From assembly GCF_017876775.1 (NCBI RefSeq), contig NZ_JAGIOP010000002.1:1860001-1924000 (forward strand): a stretch of 64,000 nucleotides of DNA, in the 5' to 3' direction. The notes under the pieces are model-generated. The model saw only the letters and a list, made by a program, of their open reading frames with translations, was not told the DNA's origin and searched no databases. The position numbers were made by a program, and so were the translations under genes. The stretch is from Mycolicibacterium lutetiense. GTDB lineage: Bacteria; Actinomycetota; Actinomycetes; Mycobacteriales; Mycobacteriaceae. This document shows, piece after piece, positions 2,470 to 38,485 of the stretch (positions are counted from its first letter, which is position 1; every line of letters starts with the position of its first letter).

Positions 2470-2475
2470 ATCTTT

Positions 2476-2543
2476 GGGCGTCGACACTGCGGCCAGATCG
2501 TGTTTTCGAGCGAAATCACGATCTGAGCGCAGAGTCGGCGCCC
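2476..2543. terminator. Long imperfect palindrome after sdhB
   Basis: Two 27-base arms (2476-2502 and 2517-2543) pair with about four mismatches around a 14-base loop that can itself pair. It starts seven bases after the sdhB stop and has no U-tract, as is common in mycobacteria. Probable transcription terminator or REP-like palindrome. Confidence 0.6.
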
Positions 2544-2552
2544 GTTTTGCGC

Positions 2553-2579
2553 TGTCACACATTGCGGGGCTGCCTCGTC
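2553..2579 (+). promoter_or_regulatory. ECF41 (SigJ-type) promoter, TGTCACA-N16-CGTC
   Basis: TGTCACA lies at 2553-2559 and CGTC at 2576-2579, with exactly 16 bases between them. This equals the published consensus for promoters read by ECF41 sigma factors. The -10 element ends eight bases before the ATG at 2588, so the predicted transcript would start at or next to the start codon and be leaderless or nearly so. An ECF41 sigma gene, sigJ, lies 1.9 kb away at 4450-5373. Confidence 0.8.
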
Positions 2580-2587
2580 TAACGGGT

Positions 2588-3160
2588 ATGACCGAGACAC
2601 GCATCGCCCCTGTAACCCCCAAACAAGCCGGCCTGCTCACCCGCGCCATGTACTGGTACGCCAAGCGCCAGTTCGGTGAGGTGCCCGAGCCCTTCGCGGT
2701 GGCCGCGCACCACCCGCGCCTGCTGGTCGCCAACGGTGTCCACGAAATGCTGCTCCAGAGCGGCTCCAAGAAACTACCCGCCACGGTCCGTGAGCTCGCG
2801 GTGTTCTGGACCGCCCGCACTGTCGGCTGCTCATGGTGTGTGGATTTCGGCTCCATGCTGATGCGGCTGGAGAACCTCGACGTCGAACGGCTCAAGTCGA
2901 TCGACGACTACGCAACCTCCCCGTTGTTCACCCCTGACGAGCGCGCCGCGATCGCCTACGCCGACGCCATGACCACCGATCCGCACACCGTCACCGACGA
3001 GCAGGTGGCCGACCTGCGCAAGCGCTTCGGCGACGACGGCGTGATCGAGCTGACCTATCAGATCGGCGTGGAGAACATGCGGTCGCGGATGTACTCGGCG
3101 TTGGGCATCACCGAGCAGGGCTTCAACACCGGGGATGCATGCCGCGTGCCATGGGCGTGA
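2588..3160 (+). CDS. Carboxymuconolactone decarboxylase / AhpD-family protein
   Basis: This 190-residue protein belongs to the AhpD-like CMD superfamily, whose members are small all-helical proteins using a CXXC pair for peroxidase or disulfide chemistry. The core here is ELAVFWTARTVGCSWC, with the redox pair C-S-W-C and the upstream Glu, near residues 65-85. The frame is open further upstream, but the ATG at 2588 is chosen because the conserved protein begins there and an ECF41 promoter sits just in front. CMD proteins are the best-known genomic partners of ECF41 sigma factors, which supports control by SigJ. The physiological substrate is unknown; peroxidase or antioxidant function is an inference from family. 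Confidence 0.85.
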   Translation: MTETRIAPVTPKQAGLLTRAMYWYAKRQFGEVPEPFAVAAHHPRLLVANGVHEMLLQSGSKKLPATVRELAVFWTARTVGCSWCVDFGSMLMRLENLDVERLKSIDDYATSPLFTPDERAAIAYADAMTTDPHTVTDEQVADLRKRFGDDGVIELTYQIGVENMRSRMYSALGITEQGFNTGDACRVPWA

Positions 3161-3175
3161 TACAAAACGCCCATG
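3150..3175 (+). promoter_or_regulatory. Hairpin spanning a stop codon and the next start codon
   Basis: CATGGGCGT (3150-3158) and ACGCCCATG (3167-3175) are perfect 9-base inverted repeats around an 8-base loop. The hairpin includes the stop codon of the CMD gene (3158-3160) and the ATG of the next gene (3173). Ribosomes finishing the first gene would melt it, so it may enforce translational coupling; there is no clear ribosome site for the second gene. Confidence 0.45.
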
Positions 3176-3964
3176 CATTGGTACACCGGCGACACGCTCT
3201 ATGACACGGTGCTGACTGCGGCCTTCGCGTTCGCCGCATTCGTGATCATCGGCGGATTCTTCGCACAGAGTTCTTACGGGCGCTTCTCGACGACGAAACT
3301 CGGTTTGAACCTCAACCCGAAGCTCGGCTGGTGGCTGATGGAGATCCCGGCGACCGTGGTTTTCTTGATCAGCTACCTGGCCGGGCCGAACCGATTCGAG
3401 CCGACATCACTTGTGCTCGCGGGAATCTGGATGCTGCACTACGCCAACCGGGGGTGGTTCTTCCCGTTGGCGATCCGCCAGGCACCGGGCAAGCGCGGCA
3501 CCTTCAACGTCTCGGTGATCGTGATGGGCATGCTCGTCACCTCCATGCACGGCTACCTCAACGGAACCCTGTTCAGCCACGACTTCTTCGGGCAATACAC
3601 CTCTGCCTGGCTGACCGATCCACGATTCCTGGTGGGGTTGGTGATCTACCTGTGCGGATTCGCGCTGCTGGTCAACTCCGAATCGATCGTGCGAAACCTG
3701 CGAGACAAGAAGAATCCCGGCGGGGCGGAATACCGGATCCCCTTCGGCGGTGGCTTCCGGTTCGTCACCAGCCCGGCCTACCTCGGCGAGATCATCGCCT
3801 GGTCCGGTTTCGCGCTGCTGACCTGGGCATTGCCCGGCGTAGCCATCCTGTTGATCACCGCAGGCAATCTGATCCCCCGGGCGATGGGCACCCACGGTTG
3901 GTATCGGGAAAAGTTTCCCGAGTACCCCACCGACCGCAAGGCACTGATCCCCTACGTGCTATGA
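3173..3964 (+). CDS. Steroid 5-alpha-reductase-like membrane reductase (SRD5A C-terminal family)
   Basis: The 263-residue protein has about six hydrophobic segments and resembles 3-oxo-5-alpha-steroid 4-dehydrogenases, NADPH-dependent membrane enzymes that reduce the 4,5 double bond of 3-oxo-steroids. The C-terminal third carries the family pattern: SPAYLGEIIAWSGFALLTW followed by HGWYREKFPEYPTDRKALIPYVL-type ending (Y-R-E-K-F and R-K-x-L-I-P). It starts 12 bases after the CMD gene, through a stop-start hairpin, so both probably sit in one transcript from the ECF41 promoter. A steroid substrate is plausible in a sterol-using mycobacterium but not shown. Its stop overlaps the stop of the converging gene by six bases. 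Confidence 0.75.
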   Translation: MHWYTGDTLYDTVLTAAFAFAAFVIIGGFFAQSSYGRFSTTKLGLNLNPKLGWWLMEIPATVVFLISYLAGPNRFEPTSLVLAGIWMLHYANRGWFFPLAIRQAPGKRGTFNVSVIVMGMLVTSMHGYLNGTLFSHDFFGQYTSAWLTDPRFLVGLVIYLCGFALLVNSESIVRNLRDKKNPGGAEYRIPFGGGFRFVTSPAYLGEIIAWSGFALLTWALPGVAILLITAGNLIPRAMGTHGWYREKFPEYPTDRKALIPYVL

Positions 3965-4450
3965 CGCGGGCGTGATCTCGATGAAAGCCATTGGCACGCC
4001 AAGGGTCTGACTGCTCACGTCGAGGCTGCGCTCGAACAGCTTCATGGGTGCACTCCAGTTGGCGGCAATCACCGCGTCGGCGTGCGCGTGTTCCGACTCG
4101 GGCAGGATGCGCGCCACGCCGGCCACCACGGGTCCGCTGGGCTTGCCGCGCAGGCTACTCGCCACCACAAGGACATTCGGGTTGTTGCGGATGCGTTTGA
4201 CCTTCCCGGTCGACGCATCCGTCCGCACGTAGAGCTTGCCGTCGGCCACACCGTGGTTGATCGGGCTGGGTATCGCCTCACCCGATTTCTTGAAGGTCAC
4301 CAACACGATCTGCCGGTAATTCTCGAATCCGGCGAACGTGCTTCCCGTCGCGTCGCCGATGTCGAAGGCGTCGCGGTGACGCATCTTGTCCATGCCCCGG
4401 AACATCATTCGGCTGAACGTCTGGGTAAGGGTTCCCGGCTCATTGGGCAT
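3959..4450 (-). CDS. PPOX-class (F420-type) flavin-fold oxidoreductase
   Basis: A 163-residue split-beta-barrel protein of the pyridoxamine-phosphate-oxidase-like superfamily that in mycobacteria mostly uses F420 or FMN. The fold is recognised from strands around RQIVLVTFKKSGEAIPSP, GKLYVRTDASTGKVKRIRNNP and VAGVARIL, in the usual order for this family. The ATG at 4450 is chosen over an upstream in-frame codon because it overlaps the sigJ stop as TGATG, a one-base overlap that points to translational coupling with the sigma factor. Substrate unknown. ECF41 sigma genes are often beside CMD proteins, oxidoreductases or epimerases, and this gene fits the oxidoreductase class. Confidence 0.75.
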   Translation of the reverse strand: MPNEPGTLTQTFSRMMFRGMDKMRHRDAFDIGDATGSTFAGFENYRQIVLVTFKKSGEAIPSPINHGVADGKLYVRTDASTGKVKRIRNNPNVLVVASSLRGKPSGPVVAGVARILPESEHAHADAVIAANWSAPMKLFERSLDVSSQTLGVPMAFIEITPAS

Positions 4451-5373
4451 CACGTCGTACCTCCACGCTCGGCAGCTCCACGAAGGGGGGATCCAGTGAA
4501 CTTGTCGGGATTGGCGATGTCCCACACCGCACAAACCAGGCCGTCGCGGATGGTCATCGCGGTGACCCGCGGCATCATCTCCGGGTAACCGGCGAGGGCC
4601 GGCGATCCCGGGTTGTAGGTGCCGAGCTGGCCGTTGACGAGGGCCAGCTGGCTGTCGGCCAGCCAGTTCGGGCCGTAACGCTGGGCCAGCCCGAACAGGA
4701 ACCTGGCCACCTTGTCGGGGCCGTGGATGACCCGCGCCGCGGTGGGAGCCCTGCGGTTGGAATCGCCGGTGAACGTGACGTCGGGATGCAGGAGGCGCAC
4801 CACGGCATCGATGTCACCGGTCGCCAGCGCCGCCATCAGTGCGCCGGCCACCTCGTTGTGTGTGTCGTCGGGTACCGGAGGCGGGGCATCGGCGACCTGC
4901 CGCCGCGCCCGCGACGCCAATTGGCGGGCCGAGGCGGCGCTGACCCCGAGCACATCGGCGATCTCGTTGAACGGCACCGCGAAGCCGTCGTGCAGCACGA
5001 ACGCCACCCGCTGGTCGGGATTCAGCCGCTCCATCACCACCATGGCGGCGAACCGGGCGTCCTCACCGGCAACCACCGCACCCAGCGGGTCGTTGGCCTC
5101 GAATCCGGTGACCACGGGCTCGGGCAACCACTCCCCCACGTATTTCTCGCGCCGGTGGGCGGCCGAACGTAGCCGGTCCAGCCCGAGCCGGCTGACGACG
5201 GTGGTCAGCCAGGCCCGCAGGTCGGCGATCGTGGTCTGGTTGTCATGCCAGCGCAGCCAGGCATCCTGCACGATGTCTTCGGCATCGGCGTAGGTGCCCG
5301 TCAACCGGTAGGCGACCGCCAGCAGGTGCGGCCGCAGCGCCTCGAACTCATCGGTGCGCGCCGCAGTGGTCAC
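4450..5373 (-). CDS. sigJ: ECF41-family RNA polymerase sigma factor with SnoaL-like C-terminal domain
   Basis: SigJ-type sigma factors direct RNA polymerase to promoters of the TGTCACA/CGTC kind and have no separate anti-sigma factor. Region 2 (about residues 10-75, LLAVAYRLTGTYADAEDIVQDAW) and region 4 (about 115-165, EIADVLGVSAASARQLASRARRQV) are clear. Residues about 180-300 form a SnoaL_2-type domain that in ECF41 proteins tunes activity, ending with the family's NPDKF motif; the usual DGGGR-like loop reads GDSNRRAP here. The start is a GTG at 5373. At 307 residues it is full length. Position and domain make-up match Rv3328c; no copy of the ECF41 promoter motif is visible directly in front of sigJ. 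Confidence 0.85.
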   Translation of the reverse strand: MTTAARTDEFEALRPHLLAVAYRLTGTYADAEDIVQDAWLRWHDNQTTIADLRAWLTTVVSRLGLDRLRSAAHRREKYVGEWLPEPVVTGFEANDPLGAVVAGEDARFAAMVVMERLNPDQRVAFVLHDGFAVPFNEIADVLGVSAASARQLASRARRQVADAPPPVPDDTHNEVAGALMAALATGDIDAVVRLLHPDVTFTGDSNRRAPTAARVIHGPDKVARFLFGLAQRYGPNWLADSQLALVNGQLGTYNPGSPALAGYPEMMPRVTAMTIRDGLVCAVWDIANPDKFTGSPLRGAAERGGTT

Positions 5374-5396
5374 AGGCCAAGCTTAATCCCGCCGAG

Positions 5397-5444
5397 TGTC
5401 ACGCCAGAGTGGCTGCCGCCGCCGAGTGCCACTCCAGCGTGACA
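5397..5444. repeat. Dispersed hairpin repeat, locus 1
   Basis: Seventeen-base arms TGTCACGCCAGAGTGGC (5397-5413) and GCCACTCCAGCGTGACA (5428-5444) pair with two mismatches. The same core recurs at 16198-16307 and 38309-38414. It lies downstream of the aldehyde dehydrogenase gene (minus strand), where it could act as terminator. Confidence 0.7.
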
Positions 5445-5493
5445 TTCGAGGCTGACGGCGGCAGATCGGCGGCGGATCGGCGGCGGATCGGCC

Positions 5494-38308: not shown

Positions 38309-38414
38309 GTCACGCTGGAGTGGCGCTCGACCTCGAGCGCCACTCTGGTGTGACAGTGCGGTTTGGGGTGCCACGCTGGCGTGACGCTCGACGTCGGCAG
38401 CCACTCTGGCGTGA
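38309..38414. repeat. Dispersed hairpin repeat, locus 3 (two units)
   Basis: Unit one (38309-38354) pairs 23-base arms, TGTCACGCTGGAGTGGCGCT... with its complement, with three mismatches. Unit two (about 38369-38414) repeats GCCACGCTGGCGTGACGCT against CCACTCTGGCGTGAT. They lie between the converging FHA-ABC transporter and mfpA genes and share the core of the copies at 5397 and 16198. Confidence 0.7.
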
Positions 38415-38485
38415 TAAACGGCCGACGAGAGGGCCTCCGAGAGTCCGACAGCGGCCTCGGAGAGTCCGAGAGGGACTCGGGAGAG

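What the first reader, a model, noticed from the sequence alone, without database searches (positions are those of the whole stretch)
2553..5373. SigJ (ECF41) and a candidate target: exact ECF41 promoter in front of a CMD gene
TGTCACA-N16-CGTC occurs at 2553-2579 with the exact published spacing, eight bases before the ATG of a carboxymuconolactone-decarboxylase-family gene. The ECF41 sigma gene sigJ, with NPDKF motif and SnoaL domain, lies nearby on the other strand. This gives a testable, direct regulon for mycobacterial SigJ, which has few known targets: CMD plus the coupled steroid-reductase-like gene.
Basis: partly seen in the sequence, partly recalled or inferred. Interest (0 to 1): 0.75.

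Follow-up and report, generated by a model that had tools for sequence, protein, structure and literature searches.

The report
SigJ promoter before a peroxidase-like gene
A mycobacterial gene for a small peroxidase-like enzyme carries, directly against its start codon, a switch sequence kept almost letter for letter in many related species next to the gene for the switch protein SigJ, which suggests a target of this little-understood regulator from sequence alone.

Summary
In detail: TGTCACA-N16-CGTC at 2553-2579, eight bases before the ATG (2588) of a CMD/AhpD-like gene. The letters alone are chance-level (2 exact genome hits, 2 for the reversed pattern). Position and conservation carry the case: 81 of 81 CMD loci (window plus 80) read NGTCAC[AG]-N16/17-CGTC-N8-ATG, with a SigJ homologue within 6 kb in 80 of 80. 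Outside Mycobacterium the promoter persists with a longer leader; the mycobacterial form is predicted leaderless. One clade of 13 sampled species lost sigJ. There the CMD promoter keeps -35 and spacing but reads G-CATC-T[TCA][GA]AG. The base before -10 and the discriminator then match promoters of a second ECF41: preceding G in 13/13 and 14/14, against 0/137 SigJ-side rows; discriminator 13/13 and 14/14, against 2/137. This fits SigJ as normal reader and a change of sigma factor after its loss. The steroid-reductase gene is an optional neighbour (27 of 80; 14 directly after CMD). The module is an instance of the known ECF41-COE arrangement (Wecke 2012). New here: the mycobacterial pair, leaderless geometry and inferred sigma change. 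No transcript was measured.

The parts
2553..2579 (+). ECF41-type promoter: -35 TGTCACA (2553-2559), N16 spacer, -10 CGTC (2576-2579)
   Evidence: exact match; 81 of 81 CMD loci keep NGTCAC[AG]-N16/17-CGTC
2580..2587 (+). 8-nt discriminator TAACGGGT between -10 and ATG; transcript start predicted at or next to the A of the ATG (leaderless)
   Evidence: length 8 in 81 of 81; length 9 in 8 of 20 further SigJ-bearing genomes read
2588..3160 (+). CMD/AhpD-like protein, 190 aa, CSWC; predicted SigJ target
   Evidence: CxxC in 119 of 119 homologues read
3173..3964 (+). steroid 5-alpha-reductase-like protein (PF02544), 12 nt after CMD; possible read-through passenger
   Evidence: in 27 of 80 loci, 16 downstream (14 directly after CMD) and 11 upstream of CMD
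3959..4450 (-). PPOX-class F420-dependent oxidoreductase (TIGR03666); its ATG overlaps the sigJ stop by one base, so probably co-transcribed with sigJ
   Evidence: 117.9 bits, cut-off 84.9, scanned from the GTG at 4453; homologue in 27 of 80 loci
4450..5373 (-). SigJ, ECF41 sigma factor with fused SnoaL_2 domain; predicted reader of the 2553 promoter, convergent to CMD
   Evidence: homologue within 6 kb in 80 of 80 loci; no ECF41 motif in the 260 nt upstream of sigJ in 79 of 79 loci that could be read

Best explanation
2553-2579 is a genuine ECF41 promoter. SigJ, encoded convergently 1.3 kb downstream, directs RNA polymerase to it when its SnoaL_2 domain lets it (that control is published for other ECF41 proteins, not tested here). 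The transcript probably starts at or beside the A of the CMD ATG, so the mRNA is leaderless, and carries CMD and in this species perhaps the steroid-reductase-like gene. The product is probably a CxxC redox protein (inferred). Shown here: sequence, geometry, conservation, co-occurrence, and the different -10 region in the clade without sigJ. Inferred: recognition by SigJ, transcript start, enzyme function, and take-over by a second ECF41 where sigJ is missing.
For: 81 of 81 loci NGTCAC[AG]-N16(80)/N17(1)-CGTC-N8-ATG. In the 80 rows with N16, GTCAC and CGTC have 2.00 bits per column, while columns 2 to 40 bases upstream of the -35 box have at most 0.42 (the base next to it 0.75). Full architecture 79 times in 80 loci, reversed control 0 in 958,396 bases; one hit in the window genome. 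SigJ homologue within 6 kb in 80 of 80. Genus sample of 248: strict pattern present somewhere in 175 of 195 genomes with CMD and SigJ; the other 20 have GTCAC[AG]-N16-CGTC at CMD. Without SigJ, 13 of 13 carry CATC instead of CGTC, one clade, support 100/98. Outside the genus 18 of 20 loci (14 of 15 sampled genera) keep GTCAC[AG]-N16-CGTC, and 15 of 15 where a SigJ homologue lies in the stretch. Published ECF41 promoter and CMD targets: PMC3426412 (passages).
Against: No RNA or protein data. The -35/-10 letters alone are not enriched genome-wide. Four other SigJ-like genes exist in the genome. Absence of sigJ beside an intact CMD is one evolutionary event in this sample. Two genomes (G147, G159) have SigJ without a close CMD, so the pair is not absolute; three loci outside the genus keep the motif with no SigJ in the stretch read.
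Confidence: 0.87

Rival explanations
1. The promoter is real but is read by another ECF41 paralogue of the same genome (for example ECF41-2 at C1:326520), SigJ being only a neighbour or sharing the job.
For: Five SigJ-like genes of 190 bits or more in the genome; ECF41-2 promoters share GTCACA-N16.
Against: The oxidoreductase promoter beside ECF41-2 has -10 TGTC, a G before it, and discriminator T[CT][GA]AGG (14 of 14). SigJ-side CMD promoters have CGTC, never a G before it (0 of 137 rows) and that type of discriminator in 2 of 137; CMD shows G and discriminator together only where sigJ is gone (13 of 13).
Confidence: 0.08
2. The conserved block is kept for another reason, for example as operator of a repressor or for translation of a leaderless start, and the ECF41 match is incidental.
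For: Spacer and discriminator positions next to -10 are also conserved.
Against: Conservation peaks on the two published ECF41 boxes at fixed N16; it persists outside the genus, where the likely start codon lies tens of bases further down, mostly behind a Shine-Dalgarno.
Confidence: 0.03
3. Chance match.
For: Motif counts equal reversed-pattern controls genome-wide.
Against: 81 of 81 conservation at fixed distance to the ATG; 232 full-architecture sites in 248 genus genomes (my sum of the table) against 12 reversed.
Confidence: 0.01

Closest known systems
ECF41 sigma factor with COE target (Ecf41Bli/ydfG of Bacillus licheniformis, Ecf41Rsp/RSP_0606 of Rhodobacter sphaeroides; Wecke 2012, PMC3426412, passages)
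   Same: TGTCACA-N16-CGTC before a CxxC CMD gene near an ECF41 sigma gene with a C-terminal extension.
   Different: The two mapped transcripts have a 22/23-nt leader with ribosome-binding site; here CGTC lies 8 nt from the ATG. The genes are convergent, an arrangement counted in 9 of 373 ECF41s there; sigJ has no motif of its own.
M. tuberculosis SigJ and its sigI promoter (Homerova 2008, not read, seen as cited in PMC4821874 passages; structure 5xe7)
   Same: Same sigma factor by sequence (464 bits to 5xe7).
   Different: The target named there is sigI; a CMD target is not mentioned in the passages read. I did not identify or examine an M. tuberculosis genome.
ECF41-2 beside its FAD/NAD-type oxidoreductase in the same genome (C1:326520, L132)
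   Same: GTCACA-N16 -35/spacing; neighbour target.
   Different: -10 TGTC preceded by G, discriminator T[CT][GA]AGG, order oxidoreductase then sigma.

Membership tests
ECF41 sigma factor (SigJ, 4450-5373) | sigma region 2 and region 4_2 | tested here: met
   PF04542 50.8 bits, PF08281 41.6 bits
ECF41 sigma factor (SigJ, 4450-5373) | C-terminal SnoaL-like extension | tested here: met
   PF12680 28.1 bits, cut-off 27
ECF41 sigma factor (SigJ, 4450-5373) | WLPEP linker motif and NPDKL/F motif (motif names recalled) | tested here: met
   EWLPEPV and NPDKF in the translation; kept in the 10 SigJ homologues aligned
ECF41 sigma factor (SigJ, 4450-5373) | activity controlled by the C-terminal extension | not testable with these tools
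   needs experiment
ECF41 target promoter | TGTCACA-N16(+-1)-CGTC upstream of a COE gene | tested here: met
   definition from PMC3426412 passages
ECF41 target promoter | ECF41-dependent transcription start | not testable with these tools
   no transcript data; leaderless start is inferred from distance
CMD family (PF02627) | Pfam curated score | tested here: not met
   19.5 bits against cut-off 23; so called CMD-like, not filed as a Pfam member
CMD family (PF02627) | CxxC motif, reported for all ECF41-linked CMDs (PMC3426412, passage) | tested here: met
   CSWC/CAWC in 119 of 119 homologues
AhpD alkylhydroperoxidase | CxxCxxxH with upstream acidic residue (recalled) | tested here: not met
   acidic residue 12 before the first Cys in 119 of 119 (E 100, D 19), but Gly at the His position in 119 of 119

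The most novel reading that the evidence does not exclude
A natural sigma-factor swap: in one mycobacterial clade without sigJ, the CMD promoter kept the shared ECF41 -35 box and N16 spacing but had its -10 region rewritten (mostly T-CGTC-TAA to G-CATC-T[TCA][GA]AG), handing the gene to the remaining ECF41 (ECF41-2). This would show that paralogous ECF41 factors share the -35 and are kept apart by the base before -10, the -10 and the discriminator. Alongside, an ancestral leadered ECF41 promoter became leaderless in Mycobacterium.
Probability: 0.55. Interest if true: 0.65.

Novelty: new member of a known kind. Interest (0 to 1): 0.5.

Why it matters
Mycobacterial SigJ has few described targets that I know of, and its signal is unknown to me. 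A target promoter conserved across the family gives a ready reporter for finding what frees SigJ, including in harmless laboratory mycobacteria. The clade without sigJ offers a natural experiment on how paralogous ECF41 factors stay insulated, and the leadered-to-leaderless shift of one orthologous promoter is a clean case for studying leaderless translation.

Tried and rejected
Motif statistics alone did not separate the site from chance; kept as evidence against relying on the letters. The second exact genome hit (L002/L136) was rejected: it lies in an open frame with a similar copy nearby. Autoregulation of sigJ by the same motif: 0 of 79. Steroid reductase as core target: rejected as conserved feature. 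My first script for -10 anchors mis-anchored L035, L036, L071 and L072 and shifted the -35 of L070, which has N17; replaced. In one search the script chose an upstream in-frame ATG or GTG for L370, L384, L386 and L388; those four starts I judged by eye. The discriminator pattern and the base before -10 were chosen after looking at the sequences. The discriminator count is 0 of 81 in the first set, but 2 of 28 in a further SigJ-side set (G194, G198), found on rechecking; the base before -10 separates the sets without exception. ECF41-2 promoters were read in 14 genomes only, 13 of them from the clade without sigJ and one from the window genome. Other leaderless ECF41-type sites in the genus precede an enoyl-CoA hydratase, small proteins without Pfam hit, a DoxX-like protein, an NmrA-like protein and an ECF41-type sigma gene; their own regulators were not followed. 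Literature: seven of ten searches used. Carboxymuconolactone decarboxylase + SigJ + Mycobacterium gave one paper, Wecke 2012, in the open-licence library only. Supplements could not be read.
Full report
What is there. The window is part of a 6.35 Mb genome (G000:C2:1860001-1924000); its closest CMD matches among named genomes are Mycolicibacterium sp. CBMA 247, peregrinum and senegalense, 94-95%, so this is a mycobacterium of that group. Gene order: sdhA, sdhB (named from sequence and recall), CMD-like (2588-3160 +), steroid-reductase-like (3173-3964 +), PPOX/F420 oxidoreductase (3959-4450 -), sigJ (4450-5373 -), an aldehyde-dehydrogenase-like gene. CMD and sigJ are convergent.

Is it more than chance? 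By letters alone, no: exact motif 2 genome hits against 2 for the reversed pattern, relaxed motif 46 against 42. The full architecture GTCACA-N16-CGTC-N8-ATG occurs once in the genome, at CMD, with no reversed hit. Of the 248 genus genomes searched 186 have it; I sum 232 sites against 12 reversed.

Conservation. The search for related loci kept the best 80 of 233 CMD loci in named genomes. In all 80 plus the window the sequence before CMD is NGTCAC[AG]-N16 (80) or N17 (1)-CGTC-N8-ATG; the -35 is TGTCACA in 53, CGTCACA 20, GGTCACA 5, TGTCACG 2, AGTCACA 1. In the 40 bases upstream of the -35 box no column exceeds 0.42 bits except the one next to it (0.75; 80 rows), so what is kept is essentially the promoter. 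A SigJ homologue (70-90% identity; cut short in L014, L042 and L046) lies within the 6 kb flank in 80 of 80; sdhB in 75; steroid reductase in 27 (16 downstream, 14 of these directly after CMD, and 11 upstream); PPOX in 27. The conserved pair is CMD and sigJ; the steroid-reductase gene comes and goes.

Genomes with and without sigJ. Of 248 genus genomes, 195 have CMD (E<=1e-40) and SigJ (E<=1e-100), 19 CMD only, 2 SigJ only, 32 neither. The strict pattern is found somewhere in 175 of 195, 5 of 19, 2 of 2 and 4 of 32 (I did not check for every genome that the hit is the CMD site, and for G053, one of the 5, it is not). The 20 of 195 without it were all read: each has GTCAC[AG]-N16-CGTC before CMD, 13 with GTCACG, 8 with nine bases to the ATG, one of them both. 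Of the 19 'CMD only', six have a broken, partial or contig-cut SigJ near CMD; five of these keep CGTC and one (G089, decayed) reads CGCC. The other 13 show no SigJ match within 5 kb in the script, nor genome-wide at E<=1e-60.

The 13 genomes without sigJ. In 13 of 13 the CMD promoter reads TGTCACA-N16-CATC-N8-ATG, once per genome; the pattern is absent from 7 comparison genomes that have SigJ. They form one clade (100/98) nested among SigJ-bearing rows in a 120-row CMD tree (drawn with midpoint root), so this is one loss, kept through later speciation. All 13 hold a second ECF41 (309-321 bits) directly after an oxidoreductase gene, as ECF41-2 in the window genome does; in 6 of the 13 it is the only NF007214 hit at E<=1e-40. 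The oxidoreductase promoter is GTCACA-N16-TGTC-T[CT][GA]AGG with G as last spacer base in 14 of 14 (13 plus the window genome). Across 137 SigJ-side CMD rows (81 + 28 + 28, some species twice) the -10 is CGTC in 137, the base before it is T 121, C 15, A 1, G 0, and the discriminator matches T[TCA][GA]AG in 2 (G194, G198). In the 13 rows without sigJ the -10 is CATC in 13, the base before it G in 13, and the discriminator matches in 13. The simplest reading is that SigJ and ECF41-2 share the -35 and differ in the -10 region, and that CMD moved towards ECF41-2 after sigJ was lost. Against certainty: the markers were picked after inspection, CATC equals neither sigma factor's own -10, the loss is one event, and outside the clade only one ECF41-2 promoter was read; hence 0.55.

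Outside the genus. CMD homologues (E<=1e-40) occur in 138 of 301 family genomes and 17 of 31 genera. I took 20 loci from 15 of the 16 other genera with a match. 18 of 20 have GTCAC[AG]-N16-CGTC before CMD; the two without are L372 (by eye an altered -35) and L379 (none). A SigJ homologue (52-75%) lies in the stretch in 15, and all 15 have the motif; of the 5 without, 3 have it. L370 (g9) has the 8-base form like Mycobacterium (by eye). In the other 17 the likely start lies tens of bases downstream, 38-67 in the 14 where the script also found a Shine-Dalgarno-like GGAG/GAGG/AGGA; for the remaining three (L384, L386, L388) the script stopped at an earlier in-frame codon and I judged a similar leader by eye. 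The two mapped ECF41 starts in print have a 22/23-nt leader (PMC3426412, passage). The leaderless form therefore looks derived in Mycobacterium. The exact start is inferred, not measured.

Protein. All 119 CMD sequences read have C[SA]WC with an acidic residue 12 positions before it (E in 100, D in 19), and Gly at the position of AhpD's catalytic His (recalled) in 119 of 119. It is CMD/AhpD-like with a redox CxxC but not a standard AhpD; solved relatives include an uncharacterised peroxidase-related protein, an AhpD and the debrominase Bmp8. Substrate unknown; a thiol-redox role under oxidative or stationary-phase stress is the guess that fits the published ECF41 view.

Known or new. Wecke 2012 defines the ECF41 promoter, the CMD/oxidoreductase/epimerase targets and the CxxC, and counts the convergent arrangement 9 times in 373 (passages). 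In M. tuberculosis SigJ is linked to sigI (PMC4821874, passages). My search for SigJ with carboxymuconolactone decarboxylase in mycobacteria returned only Wecke, in an open-licence library. So: a new, well-supported member of a known kind, with two features that I have not seen described in what I read: leaderless geometry, and a probable change of sigma factor.

Noticed in passing
L132 (G000:C1:321500-332500), reverse strand: A second ECF41 follows an oxidoreductase gene with its own TGTCACA-N16-TGTC promoter: a separate, non-CMD ECF41 module in the same genome.
   Followed up: partly
L278:4300-5300 (G115, 3,268,203 bp, a size I recall as that of M. leprae): A decayed CMD copy still carries GGTCACA-N16-CGTC-N8-ATG in front; no SigJ at E<=1e-60 in that genome. 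Described only.
   Followed up: partly
L267, L268, L269, L270, L272-L275: Leaderless ECF41-type promoters in other mycobacteria precede small proteins of 129-148 aa, apparently membrane proteins by eye; the three scanned (L267, L270, L273) have no Pfam hit: candidate uncharacterised targets of other ECF41 factors.
   Followed up: no
L274 and L275 around position 4000: Divergent pair of ECF41-type promoters almost back to back, before a short ORF (45-46 aa) and a 129-aa protein.
   Followed up: no
L266, L282: ECF41-type promoter 8 nt before an enoyl-CoA-hydratase-like gene (L266 scanned, L282 alike by eye); similar sites appear in several genomes of the list.
   Followed up: no
window 5394-5447, 16291, 38339-38419: Repeated element near GAGTGTCACGCCAGAGTGGC, 6 copies with up to 3 mismatches against 0.01 expected; two copies lie upstream of sigJ.
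   Followed up: no
window 2470-2545: Intergenic inverted-repeat-like block between sdhB and the promoter, visible before CMD also in L003 and L010 but not in most other rows; one copy in the window.
   Followed up: no
L226-L231, L233-L239 (13 genomes without sigJ; neighbours read in 7): CMD lies divergent from an acyl-CoA-dehydrogenase-like gene in the 7 loci annotated (by eye); a TTAGTCCGTCAA-like block stands in front of CMD in 12 of the 13, not in G166.
   Followed up: no
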